This document shows positions 21,958 through 61,013 of a stretch of 64,000 nucleotides of DNA, one piece after another. Each line of letters starts with the position of its first letter. Positions within the stretch are counted from its first letter, which is position 1. This DNA is from a virus: positions 1-64,000 of IMG/VR virus record IMGVR_UViG_3300032050_000004; one strand, given 5' to 3'. Position numbers and translations under genes: made by a program. The notes below the pieces were generated by a model. It saw only the letters and a list, made by a program, of their open reading frames with translations. It had not been told where the DNA came from and ran no database searches.

Positions 21958-24177
21958 ATGAAAAAAAGTAAAAAACCGAATGGTTATTGGACTAAGGAAA
22001 GGTGTCATCAAGAAGCTTTAAAATATAATAGCATAAGTGATTTACAGAAGGCAAATGGAAGTGTTTGCCTTATAGCTCGCAAAAATGGTTTCATGGAGGA
22101 AATATGTAGCCACATGGAAAGGCTAATAAAACCTAATGGATATTGGAACAAGGAGAGGTGTCATGAAGTGGCCCTAAAATATGAGAGCAGGGTTGAATTC
22201 CAAAAAAAAGACCATAGTGTTTACCAAGCGGCCAGAAGAAAAGGTTTTCTTGATGATATATGTGGACACATGGAAAAATTAGTTAAACCTAATGGATATT
22301 GGACACAAGAAAAATGTCACGAAGAAGCATTAAAATATAATAGAATAGTAGATTTTCAAAGAGGATCCTCATCGGCCTATCATGCTGCTTTAAAAAAAGG
22401 ATTTTTAGATAAAATATGTGGTCATATAAATTATGTATGTACCCCACATAAAAAGGTTGATTATGAACATCATAAAAAAATTGCTCTAAATTATAATAAT
22501 AGGCGTGATCTTAATAAGAACCATCCTTCTATTTATCAAATGATAATAAAAAGGGGATGGAAAGAACTTTTAGACCACATGGAATATATTTTTTTACCTA
22601 ATGGATATTGGACAAAAGAGAAAATTAGTGAGATTGCATTGAAATATGATAACTTCAAGGATTTTAAAAAAAATGATTTAAGGGCTTATGAGGCTATGTG
22701 TAAAAAAGGTTGGAAGGAGGAGTTGTGTCAACATTTCAAAGAAAATCCAAATGATTGGACAAAAAAAGAAAACTGTATAAGAGTTGCTTTAGAGTGCATA
22801 ACAAGAAGTGAATTATATAAAAAATTTCCCGGTGCATATCATTCAGCATTAAAAAATTGTTGGTTAGATGAAATATGTCAACACATGGGTCCCAAATCTT
22901 CATTAAATTATAGATATATATATGCATTTGAATTTGATGATAATCACGTATATGTTGGGTTGACGCATAACATGAACAAAAGATTATTAGATCACATTTC
23001 TGGAAAAAACTCCAAAAAATCTCAAGCGAATAAGCACTGGGAAAAAACAGAGTCTTGTTTTGAATTTAAACTAGTATACCCTGAAAGCTTTGATATGAAT
23101 GAAGCAGGATTGAAAGAAAATGAGGCTATAGAATTTTACAAAAAAAATAATTGGATTATTTTAAACAAAGCAAAAGCCGGTGGTTTGGGGGGGATGAAAG
23201 AAATCAATACTGAAAAGAATTTTTTAAAGATAGCATCAAAATACAAAACTTATTCAGAATTAAAAAGTAAAATTACCTCCCATTTTTTAACTAAGGCTAT
23301 AAAAAATGGATGGTTAGAAAAAACAGGTCTTATAGATGATAGAGTTAGAAAGTGGAATAAAGAGGATGCTTTTGAAGTTGCAAAAACCTGTAAAAACATT
23401 GCTGATTTACAAAAAAAATATAATGGTTTGTATAAGTATCTTAAAAAAGAGAATTTTTTAGAGGAAGCAATGTCACACAAAGTCATTAGAGTACCTTATT
23501 CGCAGAAATATACTCTTGAACAATGCACCGAAACTTGTGCTAAATTTAACAGTAAAAATGAATTTCGTAAAGCTGAATATGAAATGTATGAATGTTGTAG
23601 ATCAAACAAATGGCTTAAACTTATCAAAACTAAGATCGAAATAGAAAATAAATTGAATTATAAACCAAAATTGGCAATTAAAATAAATAAAAAAATAGAA
23701 TCTTATGATTTTGAGAATATAATAGAAATCGCTAAAAGTTATAATAAAAGATCAGATTTCAAAAATGATTATCCGGATATATTCAAAAAAGTAATTAAAA
23801 GTTGTCATAGAAATTTAAGAAAACAAATAATTGGTCATATGAAAAACGACTTGGATGGAAGAAGTAAGAAAAAATCAATCTGGACTTACGAAAAATGCTT
23901 GGAAGAGTCCAAAAAATACGATAGCAGGTGGGCTTTCCGGAAAGGCAGCAAGACCGCTTATGAACAATCAATTAAGAATGGTTGGGTTGCCGAATTTTTT
24001 CCTGAAATCAAGAAAAACAAATCCAAATGGACCTACGAAAGGTGTTTTGAGGAATCCAAGAAATACAAGACGAGAATCGAATTCATAAAGAGAAGCAAGA
24101 CTGCATATGTTAATGCATTCAAAAACGGATGGATTGACGACTTCATTCCCTCTTTAAGGAAACTAAAAGCAAAATAA
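21958..24177 (+). CDS. Giant GIY-YIG nuclease with tandem helical repeats
   Basis: 739 residues. About six copies of a 40-55-residue repeat (pattern WTxExCxxxAxKYxxRxxFxK, then a small-residue/aromatic patch AYxxAxxxGW and LDxICxHM) precede a GIY-YIG domain at about 318-410 (YIYAFEFDDNHVYVGLT, then RLLDHISG and later an E in LKENEAIEF). About five to six more repeats follow. GIY-YIG enzymes are homing or repair endonucleases; the repeats look like DNA-recognition modules. The last two repeats (23.85-24.17 kb) are more G+C-rich and more alike, suggesting recent expansion. Flanked by repeat copies A/C and B. Confidence 0.85.
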   Translation: MKKSKKPNGYWTKERCHQEALKYNSISDLQKANGSVCLIARKNGFMEEICSHMERLIKPNGYWNKERCHEVALKYESRVEFQKKDHSVYQAARRKGFLDDICGHMEKLVKPNGYWTQEKCHEEALKYNRIVDFQRGSSSAYHAALKKGFLDKICGHINYVCTPHKKVDYEHHKKIALNYNNRRDLNKNHPSIYQMIIKRGWKELLDHMEYIFLPNGYWTKEKISEIALKYDNFKDFKKNDLRAYEAMCKKGWKEELCQHFKENPNDWTKKENCIRVALECITRSELYKKFPGAYHSALKNCWLDEICQHMGPKSSLNYRYIYAFEFDDNHVYVGLTHNMNKRLLDHISGKNSKKSQANKHWEKTESCFEFKLVYPESFDMNEAGLKENEAIEFYKKNNWIILNKAKAGGLGGMKEINTEKNFLKIASKYKTYSELKSKITSHFLTKAIKNGWLEKTGLIDDRVRKWNKEDAFEVAKTCKNIADLQKKYNGLYKYLKKENFLEEAMSHKVIRVPYSQKYTLEQCTETCAKFNSKNEFRKAEYEMYECCRSNKWLKLIKTKIEIENKLNYKPKLAIKINKKIESYDFENIIEIAKSYNKRSDFKNDYPDIFKKVIKSCHRNLRKQIIGHMKNDLDGRSKKKSIWTYEKCLEESKKYDSRWAFRKGSKTAYEQSIKNGWVAEFFPEIKKNKSKWTYERCFEESKKYKTRIEFIKRSKTAYVNAFKNGWIDDFIPSLRKLKAK

Positions 24178-26017: not shown

Positions 26018-27442
26018 ATGAATAATAATGCAGAGAGCAGGTTAAATGATCTTGAGAGTTTTTTAAGTGAATCAGCGATAATTTCAAAAGCAGATTCAAA
26101 GGGCAAGATAACTTATGTAAATAAAAGGTTTGAAGAAGTTTCTGGATGGAAGCTTGAAGAGGTATTGGGCAAGGACCACAATATTGTAAATTCCGGAAAG
26201 CATCCAAAAGAATTTTGGTCGGAGATGTATAGGGTTGTTACAAAAGAAAAAAAGGTTTGGAATGCAGTATGCACCAATATTTCAAAAAGCGGTGAATTAT
26301 ATTACGTTGATACGTTCATAAAAGGGAGTTTTGATACTGAGGGTAATTTGACTGAATTCATGTCTATTAGACAAGATGTTACAGACCTTAAGAAAAAGGA
26401 ACTAGAAATTCACAATAGAATGAGTGCAATAAATAAATCTAACGCAGTTATTGAGTTTGATTTAGAGGGTAAAATTATTTTTGCCAATAATTTATTTATA
26501 GAAACTATGGGATATTCTTCACAGGATGAAATAATTGGGAAGCATCACAGAATTTTTATAGACGATGAATACGCAAAAAGTGATGATTATTTTCTTTTTT
26601 GGAAAAAGTTAAGAGATGGTATATTTTTTTCTGGTGAAATTTCTAGAATTCGAAAAAATGGGTCTTTAATATATTTACAGGCCACTTACAATCCGATTAT
26701 TGATGTAGACGGTAAGATTTATCGTATTATGAAAATTGCCATTGACATTACTAATTCATATGAGCAAAAGAAAGAAATCGAAAAGAAAAACACTTATTTA
26801 GAACATGCAGCAAAAATATTGAGACATGATATGCATTCTGGTATCAATACTTATATGCCAAGAGGTTTAAGTTCTTTAGAAAGGAGATTAAAACCTGAAG
26901 ATATTATATCATTAAAAATTGAGGCACCAATTAAAATGATTAAAGAAGGTTTAAAACATTCTCAAAAAGTATATAAAGGTGTTTATGAATTTACAAATTT
27001 AGTTAAAAAAGATGTTGTTTTAAACAAATCGGAATGTGATTTAAAAAATATATTATCTGATTACTTATCATCAACAGCCTATAGTAGCCAAGTTATTATT
27101 GATAGTTTACCAACCATTGAAGTTAACGAAGCTTTATTTTGTACTGCAGTTGACAACTTGATTAGAAATGGTTTAAAATATAATGATTCGGATACTAAGT
27201 TTGTTAAAATATATTCAGAGGGAAATTATATTTATATACAAGATAATGGTAGGGGAATCACACAAGAAGATTTTGATCACTTATCTAAACCATATATCAG
27301 AAAAGAAGGGCAAAAAGAATCTGGTACTGGTTTAGGGTTAAATATTTGTGTTGCAATTTTAGAGGAACACGGATTTGTTATTACCTGTGAGAAAAATGAA
27401 ATAGGAACAAAAATGAAAATAAAAACAAAACAAACAAAATAA
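26018..27442 (+). CDS. Two-PAS sensor histidine kinase
   Basis: 474 residues, no membrane segment. PAS1 about 12-130 (SKADSKGKITYVNKRFEEVS), PAS2 about 135-255 (IEFDLEGKIIFANNLFIETM), a short linker helix, an H-box (ILRHDMHSGI) near 272, then an HATPase domain with N-box DNLIRNGLKYN, G1 DNGRGI and G2 GTGLGLNI. It should autophosphorylate on the histidine and pass phosphate to the adjacent response regulator. First gene of a three-gene operon (13-nt gap, then a 4-nt overlap). A two-component system is unusual in a phage. Signal sensed is unknown. Confidence 0.92.
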   Translation: MNNNAESRLNDLESFLSESAIISKADSKGKITYVNKRFEEVSGWKLEEVLGKDHNIVNSGKHPKEFWSEMYRVVTKEKKVWNAVCTNISKSGELYYVDTFIKGSFDTEGNLTEFMSIRQDVTDLKKKELEIHNRMSAINKSNAVIEFDLEGKIIFANNLFIETMGYSSQDEIIGKHHRIFIDDEYAKSDDYFLFWKKLRDGIFFSGEISRIRKNGSLIYLQATYNPIIDVDGKIYRIMKIAIDITNSYEQKKEIEKKNTYLEHAAKILRHDMHSGINTYMPRGLSSLERRLKPEDIISLKIEAPIKMIKEGLKHSQKVYKGVYEFTNLVKKDVVLNKSECDLKNILSDYLSSTAYSSQVIIDSLPTIEVNEALFCTAVDNLIRNGLKYNDSDTKFVKIYSEGNYIYIQDNGRGITQEDFDHLSKPYIRKEGQKESGTGLGLNICVAILEEHGFVITCEKNEIGTKMKIKTKQTK

Positions 27443-27455
27443 AAAAAACAAAAAA

Positions 27456-27893
27456 ATGATAGAATCAATTTTATTAGTAGATGATGAGGATTTATTCCAC
27501 TTAGTATTTGAGGACGCTTGTTCATTACTTGATATAAGTTTGTCTTTAAACTCATTAAATAGTTCTGACGAAGCTGCTAAACTATTTCAAAAATGGTTTC
27601 AAAGTGGTAATGATAATAATAAGCCTGAATGCGTATTTGTTGACTTAAACATAATTGGTAGTTCTTTTGATGGTATTGAGTTAATTAGAAAAATTAATTT
27701 TGAATATGGCAATAACGTAGTTGTAGGTATTATTTCATCATCAAATGAACCGGAAGAACAAGCAAAAGCAGTTCAGGCTGGTGCTCAATTTTGGATTATT
27801 AAATCTGACGATATTGAGCCACGTTTAGATGAGTTCAGAAAAGATTTTGAAGGTTATAAAAAAAGAACCTTACCATTTAAAGTTTATAAATGA
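27456..27893 (+). CDS. Single-domain response regulator
   Basis: 145 residues, one receiver domain. Acidic pair D9/D10, phosphoacceptor D63 (CVFVDLN), switch serines at 94-96 and K116 (FWIIKSD) are all present. No output domain, so it works like CheY or Spo0F through protein contacts. It overlaps 27890-28564 by 4 nt, suggesting that gene product is its partner or target. Confidence 0.9.
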   Translation: MIESILLVDDEDLFHLVFEDACSLLDISLSLNSLNSSDEAAKLFQKWFQSGNDNNKPECVFVDLNIIGSSFDGIELIRKINFEYGNNVVVGIISSSNEPEEQAKAVQAGAQFWIIKSDDIEPRLDEFRKDFEGYKKRTLPFKVYK

Positions 27894-30467: not shown

Positions 30468-31031
30468 TTAAGATTCATTACTAAACCTTAGCATACCTTC
30501 ATCGTCAATATAAAGATCTACTTCTTTTAAGTTATGAGCTGCAGTCATTAATTGATTTTCATTTTCGTAGGTATAGTCAAAAAAACCTGAACCGTGTCTA
30601 TTTCTGGTAAGCCAAATATCATGTCCCAGACGTTCTAAACCATTTTCATTCACAGCTTCATTTACAGCTTCAATTCCTGCTAATTTTATAAACTTTTTAA
30701 TATCAAGATAAGCTTGAATCAAAGAGTCTGTGGTAATATAATCTTTACTAAAAGAATCAACTCCTTTGGATTTAAGTTCTTTTTGCATTCTGATGATTTT
30801 ATCTATTTCGCTTTCATCTTCATCATCGTCGTCATCATCGTCAAAATCATAATCTTTTTCTGAATTCCCTGTATCTTTTAAATTTTCTTCTTCTGTCCAA
30901 AGTGCAGCTTCTAAATAGCCGTTCATAATTTGTTTTATTTCAGATTCGGTCAAATCATTCATATCTTCATTTTCTTTAAGGATACCGGCAAGAACTTGCA
31001 TTCTTTTTATTTCATTGATAAGATTGCTCAT
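30468..31031 (-). CDS. Leader-bearing putative virion protein, acidic
   Basis: 187 residues. Leader MSNLINEIKRMQVLAGILKE with the cleavage candidate ILKE at 17-20 (the LAGI class shared by five proteins here). The middle has an aspartate run (YDFDDDDDDDEDESE). The C-terminal half (GLERLGHDIWLTRNRHGSGF) resembles small phage proteins with HDFWLTRNGHGAGF, family role unknown. Late motif at 31034-31043. Confidence 0.7.
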   Translation of the reverse strand: MSNLINEIKRMQVLAGILKENEDMNDLTESEIKQIMNGYLEAALWTEEENLKDTGNSEKDYDFDDDDDDDEDESEIDKIIRMQKELKSKGVDSFSKDYITTDSLIQAYLDIKKFIKLAGIEAVNEAVNENGLERLGHDIWLTRNRHGSGFFDYTYENENQLMTAAHNLKEVDLYIDDEGMLRFSNES

Positions 31032-31836: not shown

Positions 31837-32682
31837 ATGAAAAATAAAAACTTATTGTCTGAAATACATAGAATGAAAGAATTGGCTGGGATTATTTCAG
31901 AGTCCAGTATGTTAAATGAGGATTATTTGGAATTAAAGTCCATAGCAAAACAACTATATACTTTATTAAAAAGTAAAGGATATGATGTTCGCTTAGTTGA
32001 GAACAGCAGTAAAAGTAAATATGCTGGTGGCACAACTTTGGCTGGACAAAAGTATCTAAACAACAAAGGTGGCAGTGTGGAGATACATCAATTTTCCGAT
32101 GTTGAACAAATTGGTGTTTTTGTACCTGCTTATACCATAATGTATCAATTTATAAAAAATCCAGCAAACCATAAATATGTAGAATCCGTAATAGCAAAAA
32201 ATCGTCCGGATCTTGTGGGAAAAAACATAGGACTAGATGATACTGAAAAACATTGGACTCATATAAAAAATTTCATGTACGGAAAATCTGGAAAAATTGC
32301 TGAAATTTCAGATTTCATGAAAGATCAAGGAATAAGACAAACCATAGGTGCTTTAGGTAAGGAATTACAAAATGCAATTAAGTCAAAATACCCAACTATG
32401 TTATTCAGTTTTGAAGACGATGCAACTGGGTATTCAATGTATTTTGCTGAACCAAAAACAGCTAAGGGTGGTATTAAAAATCCAAATCAGCGTCCTAATG
32501 CACCGAAGCCTGAGGGCAATGACCAACAAAAAATGGCAGCTGAAGATTCTCAGATAAATGAAAGAGGTTTGGCTTTTAACCAAAAGACTTTGACTCCTAG
32601 GACTGACGGAAGTGATTTACCATATCATGCACCAGTAACAACAAACAAACCTCATCCAAATAGAAAAAATAGATTCAAATGA
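31837..32682 (+). CDS. Leader-bearing putative virion protein
   Basis: 281 residues. Leader of the LAGI class with cleavage candidate IISE at 19-22. The body is alpha/beta with GSVEIHQFSDVEQIGVFVP and a Pro/Asn-rich tail (NPNQRPNAPKPEGNDQQK). Its ATGA junction with 32679-33089 couples two leader-bearing genes whose first eight residues are identical, indicating duplication of the leader. Confidence 0.7.
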   Translation: MKNKNLLSEIHRMKELAGIISESSMLNEDYLELKSIAKQLYTLLKSKGYDVRLVENSSKSKYAGGTTLAGQKYLNNKGGSVEIHQFSDVEQIGVFVPAYTIMYQFIKNPANHKYVESVIAKNRPDLVGKNIGLDDTEKHWTHIKNFMYGKSGKIAEISDFMKDQGIRQTIGALGKELQNAIKSKYPTMLFSFEDDATGYSMYFAEPKTAKGGIKNPNQRPNAPKPEGNDQQKMAAEDSQINERGLAFNQKTLTPRTDGSDLPYHAPVTTNKPHPNRKNRFK

Positions 32683-33089
32683 AAAATAAAAATTTATTAA
32701 GCGAAATACGCAGGATGCAAGAACTTGCCGGAATAATTACTGAGGGTAATGTAAATGAAAATTGGTATAGTGTAAAAAAATGGGATGATGCAGGTCAAAA
32801 GTATGTTAGTCATTTAGGTGGAAATATTGATGGCTTGAAAGAACAGCCCAAGTTCAAAGTAAAAGATGTTGTAAAAATCAAAGCATATCAAAAAGAGTAT
32901 ATGGCTCAAATCATAGGAATTTTTGCGAATTATGATACTCAGGAAATATTATATGGAGTGAGGATTTTTTCAGATCCTACAATTCCAACAAGTAGTACAT
33001 CGCTTGATAAAATCGAAGAAGTTGATATAATTGAAAAATTGTCTGAGATACCAGATAATATAAAAAACAATCCAAAATTCGAGAAATAG
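32679..33089 (+). CDS. Leader-bearing putative virion protein
   Basis: 136 residues. Leader ends ELAGIITE (cleavage candidate at 19-22). The rest has FKVKDVVKIKAYQKEYMAQI, resembling a KOW/SH3-like barrel, and an acidic C-terminus. Overlaps the preceding gene by 4 nt and is followed by a terminator. Confidence 0.68.
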   Translation: MKNKNLLSEIRRMQELAGIITEGNVNENWYSVKKWDDAGQKYVSHLGGNIDGLKEQPKFKVKDVVKIKAYQKEYMAQIIGIFANYDTQEILYGVRIFSDPTIPTSSTSLDKIEEVDIIEKLSEIPDNIKNNPKFEK

Positions 33090-35780: not shown

Positions 35781-37703
35781 ATGAATTTACGTTTAGAAAT
35801 AAGAGAGATAATAAAATCCATTTTAAATGAGGGAAAAAACCCATTTGAAGTAATGGATTATTATTTAAAAAATGAACCTGCTCTTATAAAAAAACTTACC
35901 ACAAAAGACAATGCTTTATTAAAGAGATTAGCTTATTTGGATATTGAATACAATCCGGAAAAATTAGAAGTTGGTAAAATATTTCCTTGGATATTAAACT
36001 TATGGAAAAAGGGCGATCCTGTTATTTTAAATTTAATATCTGGTACTCCAGATGCCAATTTACTTAACAAGTTTAAATCCTCTCAGGAATTATTTAATAA
36101 AGGTTCTTTTAAAAAATCTATAGGTGTTACTGATATTCAAAAATTCAAGAATGTAAATGATTTTATAGAAAAGGTAAGTGCAGCATTTATTGAACCTACT
36201 GAACTACCGGCTTTTGCAAATTTTAATGCTGATGAGATTAATAAAGATATTAAGGAAGGTATAATTGCAAGAACTAATTTATCTAATGACAATTTCTTTA
36301 TCATAACTCCATTAAAGAAAAAAGGAGCTTGTAAATATGGAAATGTTCATAATAAAGAAAATCAATGGTGTACTTCTAAGGTTGAAAACAACGCTTTTGA
36401 TTCTTACAAAGATGGTATTCTTTATATTTTTATGGATAAAAAAGATAATCTTAAATCTAAGTATCAGTTATTTTACAAAGAGGGAAGATTTCAATTCATG
36501 GATGAATTTAACAGACCTTTTAATTATGAAGGGTTTTTTGATGAAAACATAGATGTTTTTCAAAAGTTGTTTCCAAGCGTAGTAAAAAATTTAGAAAACA
36601 AAGAAGAAGGAGATCCAAAACTATTTAGTCAAATTATTAATTATTTTCCAAGATATTATAAAGAAATTTATTTTACGAATATAGAGAAATTTTCAAAAGG
36701 ATTATTAGCAGATTTAATTCAAATAAATCAAGGTAAAATAAATCCTGAAGAATTCTTCTCAAGTGAAAAAGTTGAGGAAATAGCGGGATTTGAATATGAT
36801 GATTTTACAGTATACAAAGATAGAATTGTTTTTGATTGTAGTTTAGATTCTATTAATGATGTATTACCAAATTATTTTTGGGCTTATAAAAATGGATATC
36901 AGTACTATGAATTTAATTCGGAAGAATTTGATTATATGTACAATTACATAAAAGAAGAAGATAAACCCAAATGGATAAGTGTCATAAAAATTTTTGATAA
37001 AGATTTTAAAGATGATGAATTCAACGATGATGGGACACTATATAGATCAATTACTGACGGGGTTACTGAAAAATACTTTGATAAACTTTTATACAATTTT
37101 TCTGGAGCATATGAAGAGGCAGTAAATAACGCACAATCAACATGGATTGATGGGGTTATGGATAAATGTCCTTTTGGAATTAGAAATGATTCGATAACTT
37201 TTGAATATAAAAAAGTAGCAGAATATTGTTTGCAAAGTAGCTATCTAAATCCAGAAAAATTTTTTGATATTATAGAGCGATGGATGGACAAAGAAGGAAT
37301 AACTGATGATAATTATTATGATTATTTTAATAATCAAATAGATTATAGTGAGGCAGAAAAAGCACTATCAGATGGTATAGATGAAATTATTGAAAATATA
37401 AAAGACGATGAAGAGCTTCAAGGAAGTTTAATAAACAAGGAAAAATTGGATAAGTTTATTAAAGATCTTAAATTTATAAAAGGATACAATGAATATTATT
37501 TAGATACAGAATTTGCTAGGATTAAAATTAAAAAAATAGATTTAGAAAATGACAGAATATTTATTCAATATTTTGAATTAAAAAATGATAAAAAACATGA
37601 AGGTTGGATAGGTATAGATGATTTACCTAGATATTCTACAACTCCAATGTTATTTGAAATTAAAAAAATAAGAGAAATTATAAGAGAATTATTAAATAAA
37701 TAA
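35781..37703 (+). CDS. Large leader-bearing virion protein with WCTS-type domain
   Basis: 640 residues. Leader MNLRLEIREIIKSILNE with LNE at 15-17. Around 170-250, ITPLKKKGACKYGNVHNKEN, QWCTSKV, then LYIFMDKKDNLKSKYQLFY and FQFMDEFNRP form a conserved phage domain with invariant Cys residues. Its function is unknown to me. The C-terminal 300 residues are acidic. A second protein with a related Cys domain is at 52850-54373. Confidence 0.7.
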   Translation: MNLRLEIREIIKSILNEGKNPFEVMDYYLKNEPALIKKLTTKDNALLKRLAYLDIEYNPEKLEVGKIFPWILNLWKKGDPVILNLISGTPDANLLNKFKSSQELFNKGSFKKSIGVTDIQKFKNVNDFIEKVSAAFIEPTELPAFANFNADEINKDIKEGIIARTNLSNDNFFIITPLKKKGACKYGNVHNKENQWCTSKVENNAFDSYKDGILYIFMDKKDNLKSKYQLFYKEGRFQFMDEFNRPFNYEGFFDENIDVFQKLFPSVVKNLENKEEGDPKLFSQIINYFPRYYKEIYFTNIEKFSKGLLADLIQINQGKINPEEFFSSEKVEEIAGFEYDDFTVYKDRIVFDCSLDSINDVLPNYFWAYKNGYQYYEFNSEEFDYMYNYIKEEDKPKWISVIKIFDKDFKDDEFNDDGTLYRSITDGVTEKYFDKLLYNFSGAYEEAVNNAQSTWIDGVMDKCPFGIRNDSITFEYKKVAEYCLQSSYLNPEKFFDIIERWMDKEGITDDNYYDYFNNQIDYSEAEKALSDGIDEIIENIKDDEELQGSLINKEKLDKFIKDLKFIKGYNEYYLDTEFARIKIKKIDLENDRIFIQYFELKNDKKHEGWIGIDDLPRYSTTPMLFEIKKIREIIRELLNK

Positions 37704-38653: not shown

Positions 38654-39484
38654 ATGAAAAACACAGAAATCTACAATGAATTAGTCCAAAAGATGAGAGA
38701 ATTCTTTTTGGCAAAGAACTTCAAAGAAGTTCCTGCACAGTCACGTCTGTCAATTTTAGCAGCGTGTGAAAATCCACATTCAGTAAAAACATTTGAATAT
38801 GGTGGTTTATTATGGCCCTTACCACAAACAGGTCAAATGTGGTTGGAATATGAACTTCTTAAAAATCCAGATTGGAATGGTGTTTTTTGTATTTCTACTT
38901 CTTATAGAGAAGAAAAAAATCCAATTCCCGGAAGACATGAATTGATTTTCCCAATGTTTGAATTTGAATCTAAGGGTGATATGAAAGTTCTTTTAAAATT
39001 AGAGAGTGAATTATTAGCACATTTAGGATTTGATTCTCCAATAGAAGTTAATTATGAAGATGTTTGCGAGGAATATGGTGGAGTAAAAATTTTAGAAAAT
39101 GAGCATGAAACAAAAATGTGGGAAGAAAAAGGATCTGTAATTTCACTTCAAAATTTCCCTTTAAGAACAAATCCTTTCTGGAACATGAAACATAATTCAG
39201 AGGGTATTTTCAATAAAGTCGATGTTATATTATACGGTCAAGAGACAATAGGATCTGCAGAGAGAAGTTGTGATGTAGAAAAAATGAGAGAGATGTTTTA
39301 TACCATTGAAAATGGTGGTTATTGCAATAAACTTTTTGAATTATTCGGTAAAGAGAGAGTAGAAAATGAATTAGAAGAGTTCTTAAATTTATATTTCTTT
39401 CCGAGATTTGGTGCTGGAATTGGTATGACTAGATTGGCAAGAGCATATCAATTAATGAAGGAAGAGAAATTAGTTATGGCATAA
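38654..39484 (+). CDS. Class II aminoacyl-tRNA synthetase-like protein (AsnRS/AspRS core)
   Basis: 276 residues, about the catalytic core only. Motif 2 CISTSYREEKNPIPGRHELI has the arginine at 85, FPMFEFE follows, ERSCDVEKMREMFY is a signature of the Asp/Asn subclass, and motif 3 GAGIGMTRLARA lies near the C-terminus. No anticodon-binding domain. Such truncated AsnRS-like proteins include archaeal asparagine synthetases, so amino-acid activation or asparagine synthesis is more likely than tRNA charging. No leader. Has its own terminator. Confidence 0.82.
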   Translation: MKNTEIYNELVQKMREFFLAKNFKEVPAQSRLSILAACENPHSVKTFEYGGLLWPLPQTGQMWLEYELLKNPDWNGVFCISTSYREEKNPIPGRHELIFPMFEFESKGDMKVLLKLESELLAHLGFDSPIEVNYEDVCEEYGGVKILENEHETKMWEEKGSVISLQNFPLRTNPFWNMKHNSEGIFNKVDVILYGQETIGSAERSCDVEKMREMFYTIENGGYCNKLFELFGKERVENELEEFLNLYFFPRFGAGIGMTRLARAYQLMKEEKLVMA

Positions 39485-39534: not shown

Positions 39535-40104
39535 ATGAATTTATTGCGTAAAAAAATTAAGGAGATTATTCAGGAAATTTATTTGAATGAATTTACTGAC
39601 GATGAATATGCAACTATAAAATCCCAATATTCTGATAAAAGAATAATTTTAAGTCATGAAAATGAAATTGACTTTTATCCAAGAGATGAACATCAAAGAA
39701 TAACTTATAAACCCAAAGGTTTGTGGTATGGATTCGGAACTTCTTGGCTAGAGTGGGTCAGATCCGAAATGCCAGACTGGGAAAAAGATTATAAAAGTAT
39801 TTTCTTATTGGAAATTAATGAAAGTTCGGTTTTAAAATTAAGCAGTAAGGAAGAATTGATAGAATTTACTAAAAACTATTCTCCTTCACACAATTCAATA
39901 GGACCATCTTCAACATCTTATTCTGAAAGAAATTTGATTGATTGGTCAATGGTTGCAAATAAATATGCTGGCATAGAAATAAATCCTTATATCTATTCAG
40001 CAAGGATGGATGAATTTACAAATTGGTATTATCCATGGGACGTTGCTTCAGGATGTATTTGGAGAAAAAGTGGTATAAAATCAATTAATAAAATTGATTT
40101 ATAA
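39535..40104 (+). CDS. Leader-bearing ADP-ribosyltransferase-like protein
   Basis: 189 residues. Leader MNLLRKKIKEIIQEIYLNE (IQE 12-14 or LNE 17-19). KPKGLWYG (59-66) followed by WLEWV, a FLLEINESSVLKL strand, YAGIEINPY and WDVASGCIW (168-176) match a phage family I read as an ADP-ribosyltransferase-fold protein (K/R-P-x-GLW start, WDxxSGCIW end). If correct, it is a capsid-delivered NAD-using enzyme like T4 Alt. The fold call is by motif memory only. Confidence 0.65.
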   Translation: MNLLRKKIKEIIQEIYLNEFTDDEYATIKSQYSDKRIILSHENEIDFYPRDEHQRITYKPKGLWYGFGTSWLEWVRSEMPDWEKDYKSIFLLEINESSVLKLSSKEELIEFTKNYSPSHNSIGPSSTSYSERNLIDWSMVANKYAGIEINPYIYSARMDEFTNWYYPWDVASGCIWRKSGIKSINKIDL

Positions 40105-40105
40105 T

Positions 40106-42514
40106 TTATTTTTCAATAACAAATCTTGATTGAAGAGTTTTTTCATCACCCAATATTACTAATTGATATAATCCATTACTTAATTTATTGAGGTCAAAAA
40201 CTAAATAATTTATATCTTTCAATAAATTTAAATTTTGACTAAACACCTCTCTTTGATTAGTATCATAAATTTTTAACAAATAATTTTCTTCTTTTTCACT
40301 AAAAATATTTATTTGAACTAGACCGGTAGAAGGATTGGGAAATAATTCCAAATGTTCTTTTGGGGTACTTTTTATTTCTCTGCAACTAAAATTTATAGGT
40401 AATGCTTTATTGAAACTTTGACCACAATCGTTTTTACTTTTTACTCTAATTCCATTTGTAGAATTTGAACCGAAATTTACATTTACATTTGTAAATGGAG
40501 TTGTCAATTTATTTGTGGTGGATGTAATTCCACCAGCAGTTATAGTTGATCCGAAAGGAGCTATCCACTCGTAATTAATTGCATTATAAACTGGTAGAAT
40601 TGAATATTGAACATTTTGTTGACCGGCACATGGATTTGCATTTCCTGTAATTACTCCGGGTAATTGAGGTATTGATTTTATTAATTGAATTCGATTGCTA
40701 CTAGATCCACATACATTACTTCCGTTTACTTGCAATGTAACATCAGTAAAATTATTATCAAAATTGATATAGACGGAATCTGTTCCTTGTCCAAATGCAA
40801 TAATTCCTCCATTACCTATAAAACTCCAATTATACTGAACTCCTCCAACTTCATTTACGCTATAAATCTCAGCAGAATTACAAACTCCATAAAAATTGCC
40901 TTTAATTTTACTCGGAGTAGATGGTGCAGTTTTTACCCAAACAAAAAGGGATTCAGCAGGAGAAGTTCCACAAGAGTTATTTGCTGTAACTACCAAATGT
41001 CCATTGGTAGTTCCAGCATTTACGCTAATTGAATTTGTATTTGAATTTCCGACCCAACCACTAGGTAAAATCCAAGTATAAGAAGTTGCTCCGGGAACAG
41101 CAGTACAAGTATATGTAGCTGTATTACTAATATTTAAACAAATAGTTCTCGGTCCTAATATTGTATCTGGTTTAGTTGGACATGGTAAACAAGGCGACAA
41201 ACAACTTGATGTGTTAATGTTGTTTAACATTAAATTTGTTGGTTGTGGACCGAATCCGTTATTAAAATTAATTCCAACACTACTTAACAAATGACAATAA
41301 GACATTATTGTTCCACCATTGCTTGGTATTGGTCCCACTAAACACGAACCACTAGAATAACCAGCTGTTGGACCACATCCATCTATTGCGGTGTTATTAC
41401 CATTCCAAACACAATCATGTGTGTGTCTTGAACCTAATAGATGACCTTGTTCATGACTTAAAACATTTACTGTCCAAGAATAAGTTGGAACCACTTGATA
41501 AGTTGTATTGATATCGGAATATGCCATTTTGTATCTCGATTGAGATGAGCATAAGCCATCGACGTAAGCAATTCCTCCACTACCTGTATATCCAACTAAA
41601 TGTGCAAGATCACCATTGAAAGAAGTTCTATAGTTTCCAAATTGATTTAAGAAGTCACCAGTACTTGGTCCTGTATAAGGATCTGTTGTTGTCCAAACGA
41701 AAATAGTTGATAAATTAATATTTATTCCATCGTTTGCATACAGTGTTGCAACTTGGTTAAAAGCTCCTTGAATATATGTGTTTACGTTTGCAACATTTCC
41801 TTTATTTAAAAAAATATCATAATCAACCTCATAATAAAAATCTACACAATTTATTGAAGTCGTATTTATTGGATATTTAGATATTTGATTATTTGAAATT
41901 TTTCCGGGAACATTCAAATAATCACAATTATAATTTGGGATGTCGACTAAATTTACATCTCCATACATAATATATCGATCTTCTTTTAATAATTTACCTA
42001 TTGTTACATTATCAAAATCGTCGCTATAAAATCCAATAATTTCATTATTAGAAAATGTAAATGATGCAATTGAATAATAATTTCCATTCACTATGCCACG
42101 ATAGTGAACAATAGTATCTTTAATTTCAAAACAAGAGTTTTTATCTGTACTTAAATAAAAATCATCAGATAAAATATCTGTTTTATATAATAATAATTCA
42201 ATACAATAATTTTCTACTACAGGTATTTTTAATCTCAGTAAATCAGGTTGAGATTCTATTATTTGATTTTTTACAGAGTTGTCAATGCTTAATAATGTAT
42301 AATCTCCAAGTTCATTGAAAATGTTTTCTGGCTCTCTTTCCCTAGACAATTGAAAGGGTTCAAAAGTTTGAAAATAATTATTTGCATCTACCAGAGTATT
42401 AATTTTCTTTGACACTTGTCCAATCTGTTCTCTATCTTTAGAATATGAATCTATTGGTAAAAAGACAATAAATATCCATGCAATTAAATTGCTAAGAAGA
42501 CTAAAATTTTTCAT
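40106..42514 (-). CDS. Secreted M12-type metalloprotease with T9SS sorting domain
   Basis: 802 residues. Signal peptide 1-24. The prodomain-like part is followed by a reprolysin-type catalytic domain with HEQGHLLGSRHTH (H354, E355, H358, H364 as zinc ligands/acid) and a downstream GGTIMSYCH Met-turn. Then come two or three PKD/Ig-like domains. A C-terminal sorting domain at about 725-802 (LELFPNPSTG, VQINIF, LKIYDTNQREVF, GLYQLVI) directs export through the type IX system and surface attachment. Presence in a phage genome is unusual. A host-type -7 box TATATTTG lies at 42541-42548. Confidence 0.9.
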   Translation of the reverse strand: MKNFSLLSNLIAWIFIVFLPIDSYSKDREQIGQVSKKINTLVDANNYFQTFEPFQLSREREPENIFNELGDYTLLSIDNSVKNQIIESQPDLLRLKIPVVENYCIELLLYKTDILSDDFYLSTDKNSCFEIKDTIVHYRGIVNGNYYSIASFTFSNNEIIGFYSDDFDNVTIGKLLKEDRYIMYGDVNLVDIPNYNCDYLNVPGKISNNQISKYPINTTSINCVDFYYEVDYDIFLNKGNVANVNTYIQGAFNQVATLYANDGININLSTIFVWTTTDPYTGPSTGDFLNQFGNYRTSFNGDLAHLVGYTGSGGIAYVDGLCSSQSRYKMAYSDINTTYQVVPTYSWTVNVLSHEQGHLLGSRHTHDCVWNGNNTAIDGCGPTAGYSSGSCLVGPIPSNGGTIMSYCHLLSSVGINFNNGFGPQPTNLMLNNINTSSCLSPCLPCPTKPDTILGPRTICLNISNTATYTCTAVPGATSYTWILPSGWVGNSNTNSISVNAGTTNGHLVVTANNSCGTSPAESLFVWVKTAPSTPSKIKGNFYGVCNSAEIYSVNEVGGVQYNWSFIGNGGIIAFGQGTDSVYINFDNNFTDVTLQVNGSNVCGSSSNRIQLIKSIPQLPGVITGNANPCAGQQNVQYSILPVYNAINYEWIAPFGSTITAGGITSTTNKLTTPFTNVNVNFGSNSTNGIRVKSKNDCGQSFNKALPINFSCREIKSTPKEHLELFPNPSTGLVQINIFSEKEENYLLKIYDTNQREVFSQNLNLLKDINYLVFDLNKLSNGLYQLVILGDEKTLQSRFVIEK

Positions 42515-42540
42515 TATTAAAAATATTAAATTATTAAATA

Positions 42541-42548
42541 CAAATATA
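42541..42548 (-). promoter_or_regulatory. Host-type -7 box for the protease gene
   Basis: TATATTTG on the minus strand fits the Bacteroidota TAnnTTTG element. Upstream DNA is rich in TTTG but none is exactly 19 nt away, so the -33 assignment is open. Confidence 0.45.
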
Positions 42549-42625: not shown

Positions 42626-42925
42626 TTATAACGATTCTTCTCCAGAACCAGAGTTGTTCTCGTTTTTGTTTTTAGAAGTCAGATATTTGTCGACAGATGC
42701 AATTCCGAATGCACCTAGTGTAATCCACAAAAATCCGTCATAAATAAATTCATTAATGTGTAATTGTTGTCCCATTGCTCCTGTAACTATGTCTACAACG
42801 AAGCAAACAACCATCATGATGAAAGAACTAAATCCAACAACTGATTTTTCATTAATATCGTTGTCATCCATAAACATTTTCTTGAAGAAGTTTTCTACTT
42901 TCTTCTGATTTTCTTTAGTAGTCAT
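42626..42925 (-). CDS. Small two-helix membrane protein, holin-like
   Basis: 99 residues: charged N-terminus, helices at about 29-49 (VVGFSSFIMMVVCFVVDIVT) and 62-80 (DGFLWITLGAFGIASVD), and an acidic tail. The layout fits a holin or a virion membrane protein; an FGxxSVDKYL-like phrase recurs in other phage membrane proteins. An unusual TTTTG pentamer repeat lies just upstream (about 42929-42950). Confidence 0.6.
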   Translation of the reverse strand: MTTKENQKKVENFFKKMFMDDNDINEKSVVGFSSFIMMVVCFVVDIVTGAMGQQLHINEFIYDGFLWITLGAFGIASVDKYLTSKNKNENNSGSGEESL

Positions 42926-43647: not shown

Positions 43648-44028
43648 TCAATATGTGCTCAAGTTAAATTCCTGAGAATAATTTCCGGATGTTGATAGTA
43701 TTATACAACGATAATTTCGGTATGGAAACAAGGAATTATAATCAACATAAGTTGTAATTGGGGTATTAAAAAACATGGGGGTAACAATTTTCCACCATCT
43801 TCCATTTATAAATTCTGTTCCAAAACTATTATCTTGAACCAATAAATAATAACCATTGTTTTGTGGACAAAAAAGATAAAAATTAACCCTTACAATAGCT
43901 GGTGAATAAAATTTATTAATAGTATAGTTATTGTAATCTACTCTTTCGTTGCAATAATAATCATCATCTATGTAACATGAATTTACAAACACAGATAAGA
44001 ATAATAATATACCAAATAATCTTTTCAT
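43648..44028 (-). CDS. Lipoprotein of unknown function
   Basis: 126 residues. MKRLFGILLFLSVFVNSC with a lipid cysteine at 18, then an acidic tyrosine-rich patch (YIDDDYYCNERVDYNNY). Beta-rich remainder. Probably outer-membrane anchored. Downstream of another lipoprotein gene (44063). Confidence 0.7.
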   Translation of the reverse strand: MKRLFGILLFLSVFVNSCYIDDDYYCNERVDYNNYTINKFYSPAIVRVNFYLFCPQNNGYYLLVQDNSFGTEFINGRWWKIVTPMFFNTPITTYVDYNSLFPYRNYRCIILSTSGNYSQEFNLSTY

Positions 44029-44527: not shown

Positions 44528-45388
44528 ATGAAAAACAAATTAATTCTTTTCGGCTTAATTACTATGATTTATAGTTGTGGGCCAGATTATAAACTCGAAG
44601 TTGAAAATTTAAAAAACGAACAAGACAGTTTATTATCTATTCAAATGCAAAAGGATTCTCTTATGAATTCTTATATAAATGATTTTAATGAAATACAATT
44701 AAGTATAGAATCTTTAGCTCAACAAGAAAAATTACTGGTTGAACAATCTAAAAGCAATGAACTTAAGCTAGATGCAAAAACTAAAATATTAAACAACATT
44801 GAATCATTTAGAAAGATTATTGATCAGAATAAGAATAAAATTTCATCACTTCAACGAAAAATTAAGAATTATAGTTTAAAAATTGATGAGCTAGATAAGA
44901 TGATAGCAAATTTAAATTTACAACTATTAGAGAGAGATTCTAGCATAGCTTTATTATCTGAAAACATAAATAAATTAAACTCAAAAATTGCTAGTGTTGA
45001 ATTAGAACTCACAAATTCAAAGAATGATAATGAGCAAAAGAAGCAAGAAATAGCTGACAAGACAATAAAATTACACACTGCTTATTATACAGTTGGTACT
45101 TACAGGGAATTAAAAGACAAGAAGGTATTATCTAAAGAAGGTGGTATTCTAGGTTTAGGTTCCAGCAAATCTTTCACTAGTGATTTGAATAATGAATCAT
45201 TTACAAAAATTGATTATACCTCTACTAAATTAATAGATATTATTTCTAAGAAAATAGAGATAATTAGTATACACCCATCTGATTCCTACAAAATAATAAA
45301 CAATGGCAAACAAATAATGGCTATTGAAATATTGGATCCGGAAAGATTTTGGCAAGCATCTAAATATTTAGTGGTTGTCAAAAGTTAA
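44528..45388 (+). CDS. Cbp1-family-like coiled-coil lipoprotein
   Basis: 286 residues. Signal and lipobox MKNKLILFGLITMIYSC (cysteine 17, then GPDYK). Residues 22-185 are a coiled coil. The C-terminal TAYYTVGTYRELKDKKVLSK, GLGSSKSF and ILDPERFWQASKYLVVV blocks match a Bacteroidota family that databases name after a collagen-binding adhesin. Surface or periplasmic. Likely host-derived: it has a host-type promoter and lacks phage leader features. Confidence 0.8.
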   Translation: MKNKLILFGLITMIYSCGPDYKLEVENLKNEQDSLLSIQMQKDSLMNSYINDFNEIQLSIESLAQQEKLLVEQSKSNELKLDAKTKILNNIESFRKIIDQNKNKISSLQRKIKNYSLKIDELDKMIANLNLQLLERDSSIALLSENINKLNSKIASVELELTNSKNDNEQKKQEIADKTIKLHTAYYTVGTYRELKDKKVLSKEGGILGLGSSKSFTSDLNNESFTKIDYTSTKLIDIISKKIEIISIHPSDSYKIINNGKQIMAIEILDPERFWQASKYLVVVKS

Positions 45389-45773: not shown

Positions 45774-46895
45774 ATGAAAAAACTTATTTTATTATTATTT
45801 GCATTTTGTCTATATCAAACTGCAAATGCTCAAACAGAAACCCTTGTATTAAAGAAATTTGACAAATGGTCATTTGGTTTTAACATAGGTGCAACAAACC
45901 CTAATTCTGACGCAACAGACAAAAAAACTTCTTTTAATGTTTTGAGTCCGAAATTTGCCTATGGATTTACACTCAGCAAACAGATTTCTCATTTCAGTGG
46001 ATTTGAAATTAATTACACTACTGGGAAAATGGGAGTTGACTATTCTCCATATACATTCGAGTCTAAATTTCAACAGATTGACGGGAGATTTAGATTAAAC
46101 TTTACAAATGGTCAAATATTAGCTAACTACAAAAAAACTCAGATATACGGATTTGTAGGTGTAGGTATGATCAACTATCAAACCTCATTGTTTAATGATT
46201 CCTCTGTAACAGAGTTAAAATCTGACTGGGTACACGTTATTCCATTTGGTTTCGGTTTTAAGAAAAGGATGGGACAAAAATCATCTTTGAATCTTGAATT
46301 CGCATATAATGGGATGAATACAGACATTTTAGATGGAAATAAAGTTGCTGGTAGTGAAAAAGACGGATACACAAATGTTAAGTTGGGATATCAATATACT
46401 TTTGGAAAGAAAAAGAAACCACTTGAGTGGGATGAGCCATTATCATATTTTAAACCACTTGCTGAACACAGTGTTGATACTTTAGTTATCATAAAAAAAG
46501 AAACTGTAGTTGTTGGTGATACATCTGGAAAACAACCGATAAATTCTTTGACTATTTTTTACGACACTGGTGATCATTTGATAAATGGAATATATTCTCA
46601 GGACCTTAATAAGATTTTAAGTCAGCTAAAACAAAACAAAGATGGCTGGATAGAAATTCTTGCTTTCTGTGATTCCACTGGCTCTGAAAAGACCAACAAC
46701 AAACTAGTAGTGCAGAGATCAAGAATTATAAAAGATTATTTTATAAATAACGACATTGATGATGATAGAATCAAGGTATATAATTATGGAATGGAGTTTG
46801 CAAAAGATCCCATACTGTCAAAAGATAGAAAGGTTATCATTAGATATTGGAAAAGCCTAGGAGAAAAAACCAACAGCAGTTGGTACAGAAAATAA
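45774..46895 (+). CDS. Outer-membrane beta-barrel with OmpA-like C-terminal domain
   Basis: 373 residues. Signal peptide 1-19 (ends TANAQ). An eight-strand-type barrel covers about 25-210 with many alternating aromatic strands, ending KLGYQYTFG. After a linker, an OmpA-like domain at about 255-365 contains IFYDTGDHLI, ILAFCDSTGSEKTNNKL and RSRIIKDYF, the usual peptidoglycan-binding layout. Host-type promoter upstream, terminator at 46940-46967. A phage-borne porin-like protein could alter adsorption or exclude superinfection. Confidence 0.85.
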   Translation: MKKLILLLFAFCLYQTANAQTETLVLKKFDKWSFGFNIGATNPNSDATDKKTSFNVLSPKFAYGFTLSKQISHFSGFEINYTTGKMGVDYSPYTFESKFQQIDGRFRLNFTNGQILANYKKTQIYGFVGVGMINYQTSLFNDSSVTELKSDWVHVIPFGFGFKKRMGQKSSLNLEFAYNGMNTDILDGNKVAGSEKDGYTNVKLGYQYTFGKKKKPLEWDEPLSYFKPLAEHSVDTLVIIKKETVVVGDTSGKQPINSLTIFYDTGDHLINGIYSQDLNKILSQLKQNKDGWIEILAFCDSTGSEKTNNKLVVQRSRIIKDYFINNDIDDDRIKVYNYGMEFAKDPILSKDRKVIIRYWKSLGEKTNSSWYRK

Positions 46896-54470: not shown

Positions 54471-55340
54471 TTAATTACCACCCATGGTAACACTAAAACC
54501 AGATTTAGTCATCGTTTCTTCACCACCTGCTTTATCAACTATTTTTATAGTTTCTTCAAAAGAACCTGAACTTTGTGCTTTTGAATAAGTGGCAGAAACA
54601 ACACTCCTGCCCTTTTCCAATAGATCTTGCCATACATTAAAAACACTTTCCTTGTATTCTGGACCTGCTTCTGAATCTATAACAGTTCTTGTGTTTGCAT
54701 GTATGTTTTGAGCTTTTTGTAAAGCTGTTTGAACAACATCTTGAACATCATTACCAAAACCATTCATAGTTGTTGTGTGACCATCTCTCAAATCAACTAA
54801 TATTTTAATTGCTTTCATTCTTTGCATATCATCACTAGTATTGACCCATATTTTTTTTGTATCTTCTAATATTCCGATAGCAATGTTTAATTCATGTTTC
54901 GGTATTGGGGTTCCGGTTGCTGCTGCTTTAGCAACTGTGCAAAATACTATCAATAAAACAAAAACTATAATTGTTATAATTATCAACTTGAAAAGTAAAG
55001 GATATTTATTTGAGAAATTCTTTAATAACTTTACTGCTGCACCTATTGTCCAACTTATGAATTGTTTTACTTTTGAAAGTATACTAAATCCAACAGAATA
55101 AGCTTGTAATAAAAAAGTGTTAAGATAATTAGCTATCTTATCTACAAAATTTGTTTTTAAATCTGTAAATATGTTTTCACTAATTAATTCAGAATCCAAT
55201 ATTTCATAAAATTCTTTTTCAGTAATTTTGTTTTCACAAAATAAATTTACAGACTTAACAGGAACAAAATTTTCATTATTTAACCTAATTCCAGCTAATT
55301 CTTGCATTCTGCGTATTTCTTTCAATAAAACCTTATCCAT
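54471..55340 (-). CDS. Leader-bearing membrane-spanning virion protein
   Basis: 289 residues. Leader MDKVLLKEIRRMQELAGIRL, candidate cut after LNNE (20-23). Hydrophobic segments at about 78-100 and 111-138 (LFKLIIITIIVFVLLIVFCT). The C-terminal 150 residues are soluble, with TMNGFGNDVQDVVQTALQKA. Could be an ejected protein that enters the host membrane. Strong AATAAATA-type late motif upstream. Confidence 0.65.
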   Translation of the reverse strand: MDKVLLKEIRRMQELAGIRLNNENFVPVKSVNLFCENKITEKEFYEILDSELISENIFTDLKTNFVDKIANYLNTFLLQAYSVGFSILSKVKQFISWTIGAAVKLLKNFSNKYPLLFKLIIITIIVFVLLIVFCTVAKAAATGTPIPKHELNIAIGILEDTKKIWVNTSDDMQRMKAIKILVDLRDGHTTTMNGFGNDVQDVVQTALQKAQNIHANTRTVIDSEAGPEYKESVFNVWQDLLEKGRSVVSATYSKAQSSGSFEETIKIVDKAGGEETMTKSGFSVTMGGN

Positions 55341-57624: not shown

Positions 57625-57831
57625 CTATTTTCTTGGACCATAATGATTGTTATGGTTACAATTCCTACTATGTATGTGATTTTTTTTAGGATAATAACTA
57701 TGCCAGTAATTGCTGTTACTTAATCTCCACTCAATACGTAAATATCTTTTAGGTTTTTTTATAGATGTTTTATTTTCAGCAACACAACCTGAAAAAAAAA
57801 TTACAAATAAAAAAAATAAAAAAAACTTCAT
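57625..57831 (-). CDS. Small histidine-rich lipoprotein
   Basis: 68 residues: MKFFLFFLFVIFFSGC (cysteine 16), then a basic His/Asn-rich tail (HSYYPKKNHIHSRNCNHNNH). Possibly metal binding. Start overlaps the stop of 57831-58616 by one base (TAATG). Confidence 0.65.
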   Translation of the reverse strand: MKFFLFFLFVIFFSGCVAENKTSIKKPKRYLRIEWRLSNSNYWHSYYPKKNHIHSRNCNHNNHYGPRK

Positions 57832-58616
57832 TAAGCAATGTATTGATTCAATTCATATCTACCAGATTCCATTCTATAAATCTGAATATGCAATTTTTTT
57901 CTAGATGGTTTACCATCTTTTTCTAAATCAAAACTCGCTTTTTTTGTATCTCCGTAATTTATTCCACCAATGCCAAAAAGAAAAAATTCTCTTTCTTGAT
58001 CGACGATCTCAAATCCCTTTTTAGTCGTTTTTTCAAGAACACTATCTAGTGCTTGAGCTAAACTTTCAAAATAAATCTCTTCAGATTTAATTTCTTTGAA
58101 CAATGCTTGACCTTGAGTGGCAGCAGCTTGAGCACCAGATGCTGCAGCAGCTGGATCAGCCAAATTAGGTTTGAAAATATAAGCCTTGAATTTGTCGTTT
58201 CTTTTTTGAACTTGCTTAGATTGAGGATCTGTGATTTGATAAGCTAATTGAAAATCTTTTATTTCACCGTCTTTAGGTCCAACTAATTTGCTACCAGCTA
58301 CAAATTTTTGTATATCTCCGGCAAAAACCGGATTAACTAAAATATTAAAACCACCAACTGGATTTCCATTATAAAACATTATTACATTTTTTGCTTTTGG
58401 ATTTGATGCCATGGCAAATTTTGCAAGGTTAGTAGTTGCATCATTAAGGTTTTTAGAGATAGCTATTTTATATCCTAATGTTTTAAAATATTTCTGTATT
58501 GCTGGAAATGTTTGCGTATCGAACTTCTGTTTAAATGCAGCAGCATCGACTTCTTGTAAAATTCCAGCCAATTCTTGTAATTTTTTCTTAAAATTTTCAG
58601 TTAATTTCATTTTCAT
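57831..58616 (-). CDS. Leader-bearing putative virion protein
   Basis: 261 residues. LAGI-class leader with ILQE at 19-22. The rest is an alpha/beta fold with NVIMFYNGNPVGGFNILVNP, an Ala/Gln-rich linker (AAAASGAQAAATQGQA) and a beta C-terminus. Unrecognised. Late motif CTATTTATTT at 58629-58638. Confidence 0.68.
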   Translation of the reverse strand: MKMKLTENFKKKLQELAGILQEVDAAAFKQKFDTQTFPAIQKYFKTLGYKIAISKNLNDATTNLAKFAMASNPKAKNVIMFYNGNPVGGFNILVNPVFAGDIQKFVAGSKLVGPKDGEIKDFQLAYQITDPQSKQVQKRNDKFKAYIFKPNLADPAAAASGAQAAATQGQALFKEIKSEEIYFESLAQALDSVLEKTTKKGFEIVDQEREFFLFGIGGINYGDTKKASFDLEKDGKPSRKKLHIQIYRMESGRYELNQYIA

Positions 58617-60115: not shown

Positions 60116-61009
60116 TTAAAAGAAATGTATTTCTGCATAGAAACCTTTTCCGGTTGAATCATAGCAACCTTCATCATCTAAATATTCTCCGTCATATATA
60201 ATTCCCCAAACAAACCTATCGTCAATAATTCGACCAATATTCAAACTTATTTTAGAAACATCAAAATTCTGTCCTTCGGGCAATTCAAACTCTCCATAAC
60301 TATACATGCCACGATCTGATGAATGAGTATAAAGATATGCTTGACCTTTATCATTTTTTTTATTTATTACAAATTCATCATAAAATTCTTTTTTTATCTT
60401 ATCATCTGTAACATCAATTTCAATTTCTTCTATTTCCTGATCATTCTTGAAGACGTTTATTACAAGTCTGGTACCTTCAGTATAATATGCTCTTTCAGCA
60501 TGAACTATAGAATCTTGATCATACCATTTACCAAAATGAGTTTCTGGTATTTCTGAGTCGTAATCATAATTCCACAAATGATCCTTCAATTCCTGTTGAG
60601 CATCATAAGAATCTTTTTTATATTTCTTTTTCCAATATTTTATCTGTGTATCATTCAAGCTGGTCACACAATTTTCGGCACCATAACCACCAATATGGAA
60701 TTTTATTTTATACTTGTCTTGTGTTTTGATTTCTGGAGTAATTATTTTTTTCTTAGCAACAGGTTTTTTATTTACAGTCTTTACAACTTTTTTGGAAACT
60801 TTTTTTGCTGTTTTTTTTACATTTTTTTTTGCTGTCTTAGTAGCTTTTTTTACTGTTTTCTTAACAGTTTTTTTTGCCGTTTTTTTTACGGGTTTAACTG
60901 TTTTCTTAACTGCTTTTTTTGTAGTTTTTTTAGCTGGTTTTGCCTTTTTAGCTGGCGAAGCTTTTTTTGCCGGTTTAGTTTTTTTCGGCATTGTTGCTTT
61001 TGTTGTCAT
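60116..61009 (-). CDS. Histone-H1-like tail plus shared C-terminal domain
   Basis: 297 residues from the ATG at 61009. Residues 1-95 are Lys/Ala/Pro repeats (KKTKPAKKASPAKKAKPAKK onwards). The C-terminal 195 residues (IGGYGAENCVTSLNDTQIKY, HLWNYDYDSEIPETHFGKWY, YLYTHSSDRGMYSYGEF) pair with the C-terminal domain of 58959-60077, without a BRCT. The two are duplicates differing by BRCT gain or loss. 38-nt gap to the next gene. Confidence 0.85.
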   Translation of the reverse strand: MTTKATMPKKTKPAKKASPAKKAKPAKKTTKKAVKKTVKPVKKTAKKTVKKTVKKATKTAKKNVKKTAKKVSKKVVKTVNKKPVAKKKIITPEIKTQDKYKIKFHIGGYGAENCVTSLNDTQIKYWKKKYKKDSYDAQQELKDHLWNYDYDSEIPETHFGKWYDQDSIVHAERAYYTEGTRLVINVFKNDQEIEEIEIDVTDDKIKKEFYDEFVINKKNDKGQAYLYTHSSDRGMYSYGEFELPEGQNFDVSKISLNIGRIIDDRFVWGIIYDGEYLDDEGCYDSTGKGFYAEIHFF

Positions 61010-61013
61010 GGTT

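What the first reader, a model, noticed from the sequence alone, without database searches (positions are those of the whole stretch)
40106..42548. Phage gene for a T9SS-exported metalloprotease
A full-length secreted reprolysin-type enzyme with PKD-like domains and a type IX sorting tail is encoded among phage genes, with a host-type TAnnTTTG box. It would be exported to the host cell surface or medium, a phage-driven change of the infected or lysogenic cell.
Basis: partly seen in the sequence, partly recalled or inferred. Interest (0 to 1): 0.7.

Follow-up and report, generated by a model that had tools for sequence, protein, structure and literature searches.

The report
Phage-borne T9SS-exported ADAM-like protease
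A giant T4-like phage of lake Bacteroidetes carries a gene for a protein-cutting enzyme built to be exported by its host's own secretion machine; related secreted proteases turn up in many other phages, in one group right beside the cell-bursting enzyme gene.

Summary
Window 40106-42514 (-) encodes an intact 802-aa preproprotease: signal-peptide-like N-terminus, ADAM-type prodomain, M12B reprolysin domain with full zinc motif, three PKD-like domains and a type IX secretion (T9SS) C-terminal domain. It lies in a 222-kb T4-like virus. A separately assembled contig (in a Fluviicola MAG) covers window 31790-63677 at 99.96-100% identity, phage sequence on both sides: not a host chimera. That copy lacks 101 bp and is frameshifted; real or assembly fault is unresolved. 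The phage has at least one more T9SS cargo and two likely ones. The gene nests inside a host protease clade. A profile search found 31 viral loci with relatives; the tree needs about nine host/phage switches (six well supported). In one clade the protease follows a GH19 endolysin gene, its catalytic domain under strong purifying selection (dN/dS 0.04-0.12). Phage-encoded T9SS cargo was already reported (PMC7468147, PMC6949934), so this is a new member of a known kind with a new enzyme class. The host-type promoter box is no better than chance, and no integrase supports lysogeny. Export and activity are inferred, not shown.

The parts
40106..42514 (-). Whole gene: 802-aa T9SS-type preproprotease P0001
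42440..42514 (-). N-terminal signal-peptide-like segment (residues about 1-25)
   Evidence: read by eye from the translation; helix 5-17 in the model
41945..42430 (-). Prodomain (residues about 29-190)
   Evidence: separate high-confidence domain in AF2 model; ADAM17 propeptide matches by profile and by fold
41195..41851 (-). M12B reprolysin catalytic domain (residues about 222-440)
   Evidence: Pfam PF13688, PF13583, PF13582, PF13574, PF01421; venom and ADAM metalloprotease folds
41423..41455 (-). Zinc-binding motif HEQGHLLGSRH (residues 354-364)
   Evidence: histidines and glutamate invariant in 36 homologues
40400..41179 (-). Three PKD-like domains (PKD_6), residues about 446-705
   Evidence: three stretches, best 446-523; beta-rich in the model
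40115..40345 (-). T9SS type A C-terminal sorting domain (residues 724-800)
   Evidence: PF18962 and TIGR04183 over curated cut-offs; seven-strand domain, pLDDT about 90
42541..42548 (-). TATATTTG, fits the Bacteroidetes -7 box TAnnTTTG
   Evidence: not above permuted-pattern controls
41971..42071 (-). 101 bp absent from the second assembly (MAG contig), which frameshifts that copy
39535..40104 (+). Convergent neighbour, 189 aa, with the phage-typical N-terminal tag MNLLRKKIKEIIQEIYLNE; no Pfam match
42626..42925 (-). Upstream neighbour on the same strand, 99 aa, hydrophobic segments

Best explanation
A T4-like jumbo phage of a freshwater Bacteroidete acquired a host T9SS cargo gene for an M12B (ADAM/reprolysin-type) zinc protease. 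Shown from sequence: an intact zymogen protease with a T9SS C-terminal domain, truly in the phage genome, with codon usage like the phage's. Inferred: in infected cells the preproprotein crosses the inner membrane by Sec, the host's own SprA/PorV/PorU-type machine recognises the C-terminal domain and moves the protein across the outer membrane, the prodomain is removed and the enzyme cuts proteins on the cell surface or in the surroundings. Likeliest benefit (a guess, about 40%): clearing proteinaceous surface or matrix material around infected cells so that progeny are released and spread; receptor removal (superinfection exclusion) and amino-acid supply are live alternatives.
For: Domains above curated cut-offs and catalytic residues invariant; AF2 fold like the ADAM17 zymogen. 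The same locus with phage flanks at 99.96-100% identity in a separate assembly. The record has T4-like head and sheath genes. GC and codon usage like phage genes. The putative host MAG has 59 T9SS sorting-domain matches and SprA. The same phage has another PF18962 protein at 66743-67291 and two proteins with a shared host-type tail, one of which was tested and matched 12 places in the MAG. Recurrence: related phage G050, cultured Flavobacterium phage immuto and huge phages carry T9SS-type cargo. M12B relatives lie in 31 viral loci, four of 23 checked with detectable PF18962.
Against: The second assembly's copy is frameshifted by a 101-bp gap, so the gene may be dispensable in that population, unless the gap is an assembly fault (a 172-bp gap also breaks the neighbouring 38654-39484 gene there). 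No expression, secretion or activity data. The signal peptide is judged by eye, and it lacks the Gln after the cleavage site that most other exported proteins of this phage show. Most phage relatives lack a detectable T9SS domain. The host link rests on MAG binning only. No homologue in the closest relatives, but those records are fragments or share little here.
Confidence: 0.75

Rival explanations
1. Assembly chimera: a host gene joined into a phage contig.
For: The domain architecture is host-typical and the nearest full-length homologues are in Bacteroidota MAGs.
Against: A separately assembled 31.6-kb contig carries the gene with more than 8 kb of the same phage sequence on one side and more than 21 kb on the other; the MAG it was binned with has no other copy; neighbours carry phage-type tags.
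Confidence: 0.02
2. A decaying passenger: a captured host gene with no benefit, already broken in part of the population.
For: The MAG copy is frameshifted; no near-identical copy was found in other viral contigs, though very near records may be left out.
Against: The window copy is intact with all invariant residues; the MAG has a similar frameshifting gap in an unrelated gene 3 kb away, as expected of a faulty assembly; no donor above 47% identity was found and codon usage is phage-like; the family recurs in many phages, one clade under purifying selection.
Confidence: 0.13
3. A virion-associated protease (tail or capsid) that digests surface proteins during entry, not a secreted product of the infected cell.
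For: Some phage M12B domains sit in very large or signal-less proteins (L012/L232, L227, L231) that look like virion parts.
Against: P0001 has a signal-like N-terminus and a T9SS tail, neither useful for virion assembly in the cytoplasm, and it is not near tail or head genes.
Confidence: 0.07
4. A lysis or egress helper: the protease acts with the endolysin late in infection, weakening the outer face of the envelope or the matrix. (A refinement of the purpose, compatible with T9SS export.)
For: In at least seven contigs of the L220 clade the signal-bearing M12B gene starts just after a GH19 endolysin gene (phrog_181), with conserved zinc motif and catalytic dN/dS 0.04-0.12.
Against: In this phage the GH19 and amidase genes lie 60 kb away; the L220 clade has no PF18962 match by Pfam, so the link may not carry over.
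Confidence: 0.25

Closest known systems
Cryophage T9SS cargo proteins (PMC7468147)
   Same: Bacteroidetes phage genes with T9SS type A sorting domains; export by the host system was proposed there
   Different: Cargo there is an endoglucanase, a GH39 and a PA14 protein in a 76-kb phage; here an M12B zymogen protease in a 222-kb T4-like phage
T9SS sorting-domain proteins in crAss-BACON cluster 2 phages (PMC6949934)
   Same: T9SS sorting domain in phage ORFs, near the head genes
   Different: BACON-domain proteins; no protease in the passages read
Bacteroidota M12B-PKD_6-T9SS secreted proteases (e.g. L056, L057, L059)
   Same: Same catalytic subfamily (100/98 clade), 41-47% identity; sorting-tail-like C-termini
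   Different: Host genes of about 960-1070 aa; the phage version is 802 aa
ADAM17 and snake-venom reprolysins
   Same: Prodomain plus metzincin fold by AF2 and Foldseek
   Different: No disintegrin or transmembrane part; PKD and T9SS domains instead
Flavobacterium phage vB_FspM_immuto QQO91933.1
   Same: Cultured T4-like phage with a signal-like N-terminus and a T9SS C-terminal domain on one protein
   Different: Annotated cohesin-domain protein, not a protease

Membership tests
T9SS type A cargo | C-terminal sorting domain above curated cut-off, at the very C-terminus | tested here: met
   PF18962 34.4/27 bits, TIGR04183 30/23 bits, residues 724-800 of 802
T9SS type A cargo | N-terminal Sec signal peptide | tested here: inconclusive
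   Signal-like by eye; no predictor available
T9SS type A cargo | Host with a T9SS | tested here: inconclusive
   The MAG that the phage contig was binned with has SprA and 59 PF18962 matches; binning is not proof of host
T9SS type A cargo | Demonstrated T9SS-dependent secretion | not testable with these tools
   needs experiment
M12B (adamalysin/reprolysin) peptidases | HExxHxxGxxH zinc motif and met-turn in a metzincin fold | tested here: met
   HEQGHLLGSRH and IMSYC; fold
M12B (adamalysin/reprolysin) peptidases | Proteolytic activity | not testable with these tools
   needs experiment
T4-like jumbo myophage genome | gp23-like major head protein and contractile sheath on the same record, over 200 kb | tested here: met
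   phrog_138 E=2e-68, phrog_23 E=3e-62; 222,069 bp
Temperate-phage moron | Integrase or lysogeny module | tested here: not met
   No PF00589 match in the 222-kb record; other integration types not searched, record may be incomplete

The most novel reading that the evidence does not exclude
Bacteroidetes phages have repeatedly captured host-type secreted M12B zymogen proteases as dedicated infection tools, exported through the host envelope and, in one clade, expressed with the endolysin as an outer-face partner of lysis or dispersal.
Probability: 0.3. Interest if true: 0.7.

Novelty: new member of a known kind. Interest (0 to 1): 0.5.

Why it matters
If export is real, a lytic-type phage makes its host secrete an active protease through a motor-driven secretion system before the cell dies, altering its surface and surroundings. 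Recurrence across unrelated phages suggests selection for it. Because a cultured phage (immuto on Flavobacterium sp. LMO8) has a T9SS-tailed protein, the general claim that phages feed cargo to the T9SS can be tested now.

Tried and rejected
Chimera: rejected by the second assembly. Promoter box as evidence: rejected by permuted controls. Exact 30-mer from inside the 101-bp segment in viral contigs: no other copy, which cannot settle the gap, since near records may be left out. tblastn of P0001 against 50,697 phage records: no match; of a sorting domain: none. Comparing the locus with close relatives: G021 starts at about 86 kb of this phage and G050 shares little here, so presence or absence could not be judged. 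PF13688 in 22 related phage records: none. Recoded stops in the short-ORF region 1-17 kb: TAG=Q gives no longer frames. Rfam: nothing.

Full report
The observation. The ORF at 40106-42514 (-) encodes 802 aa. Pfam and NCBIfam give an M12B reprolysin domain, three PKD_6 domains and a T9SS type A sorting domain, all above curated cut-offs. The zinc-binding residues of HEQGHLLGSRH and the MSYC met-turn are invariant in 36 homologues. AlphaFold2 with that alignment (mean pLDDT 79.5) shows a prodomain (about 29-190), a catalytic domain, PKD-like beta domains and a well-predicted C-terminal beta domain; the best PDB match is the ADAM17 zymogen, and the ADAM17 propeptide also matches by sequence profile. 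So the protein is an ADAM-like zymogen. The signal peptide is by eye only.

Is it in a phage? The window is the first 64 kb of a 222,069-bp virus record. The record holds a gp23-like major head protein, tail sheath, helicase and DNA polymerase; no phage integrase was found. Cultured phages nearest by head protein include the Flavobacterium phages immuto, at 43% identity. An independent assembly, JAJTEO010000009.1, binned in a Fluviicola MAG, is collinear with window 31790-63677 at 99.96-100% with only phage sequence. The gene is therefore phage-borne, not chimeric. In that copy 101 bp inside the protease and 172 bp inside the gene at 38654-39484 are missing; both break the frame. Two such gaps 3 kb apart with otherwise near-perfect identity fit a faulty assembly, but I cannot exclude real deletions. 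GC (30.0% against 30.1%) and codon usage match the phage.

Secretion context. That MAG has 59 sorting-domain matches and SprA, so if Fluviicola is the host a T9SS is present; binning alone does not prove it. The same phage encodes a second PF18962 protein at 66743-67291 and two proteins, 68528-69640 and 160557-161963, with a similar C-terminal region; that of 68528-69640 has 12 matches in the MAG, at 41-43% identity for the best, a host-type tail that Pfam does not name. Related phage G050 has another. Cultured phage immuto (QQO91933.1) and huge phages LR756502, LR745206 and LR756504 also have PF18962 proteins.

Origin and recurrence. In catalytic-domain trees the protein sits in a 100/98-supported clade with Bacteroidota proteins and with L011, a different phage whose protease lies upstream of a scaffold-like ORF and a major head protein (phrog_11589). 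A profile search of IMG/VR found 31 loci. All 23 distinct proteins checked match Reprolysin_5; four have a detectable sorting domain: this one, L214, and, just under the gathering score, L011 and L215. L215 lies in another T4-like phage. The phage label needs nine changes on the tree, six forced by well-supported branches (bootstrap not fully settled, some long branches). In the L220 clade (at least seven contigs) the gene starts just after a GH19 endolysin gene, proteases are 82-94% identical between non-identical copies, and catalytic dN/dS is 0.04-0.12. This shows selection for a working enzyme in that clade; it is not shown for the window's own gene.

Comparison with the literature. Phage T9SS cargo was described for Cryophage (endoglucanase, GH39, PA14) and T9SS domains were noted in crAss-BACON phages. 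I found no report of phage M12B T9SS proteases in the held library; preprints and most subscription papers are not held. Hence: a new member of a known kind, with a new enzyme class and a wider distribution than reported.

Function. Export and proteolysis follow from family knowledge and are likely. The use to the phage is open: matrix or surface clearing, receptor removal, nutrient supply, or help with egress as the endolysin-linked clade suggests.

Noticed in passing
window 30468-31031, 31837-32682, 32679-33089, 35781-37703, 39535-40104, 54471-55340, 57831-58616 and phage positions 93444, 116434, 158065, 195650: Many unrelated ORFs share a 15-20-aa N-terminal tag such as LLxEIRRMQELAGI(I/L)xE or LRKxIRxIIxE, resembling T4 capsid-targeting sequences cut by a prohead protease: candidate head-packaged, ejected proteins, on both halves of the genome.
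   Followed up: partly
L220 7238-9674; same in L221-L224, L226, L228, L229, L241: Conserved pair of GH19 endolysin and signal-bearing M12B protease in several viral contigs, under purifying selection.
   Followed up: yes
phage positions 66743-67291, 68528-69640, 160557-161963 (outside the window): Further T9SS-type cargo proteins of the same phage.
   Followed up: partly
window 43648-44028, 44528-45388, 45774-46895: Two lipoprotein-like ORFs and an outer-membrane beta-barrel plus OmpA-domain protein near the protease: a possible surface-remodelling set.
   Followed up: partly
window 58959-60077 and 60116-61045: Neighbouring related proteins with histone-H1-like Lys/Ala/Pro repeats at the N-terminus; the first also has a BRCT-like stretch (by eye).
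   Followed up: no
window 26018-27893: PAS-type sensor histidine kinase followed by a response-regulator-like ORF in a phage (by eye).
   Followed up: no
window 21958-24177: 739-aa ORF with many repeats of a KPNGYWTKERCHEEALKY-type unit around a GIY-YIG-like stretch (by eye).
   Followed up: no
phage positions 208406-210766 and 210820-213459: Two tandem tail-sheath-like genes with nearly identical N-termini.
   Followed up: no
L012/L232, L227, L231: M12B domains inside very large or signal-less phage proteins, likely virion parts.
   Followed up: partly
MW353176.1 12691-13422 (L206 3692-4423): Cultured Flavobacterium phage immuto encodes a cohesin-domain protein with a T9SS C-terminal domain.
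   Followed up: partly
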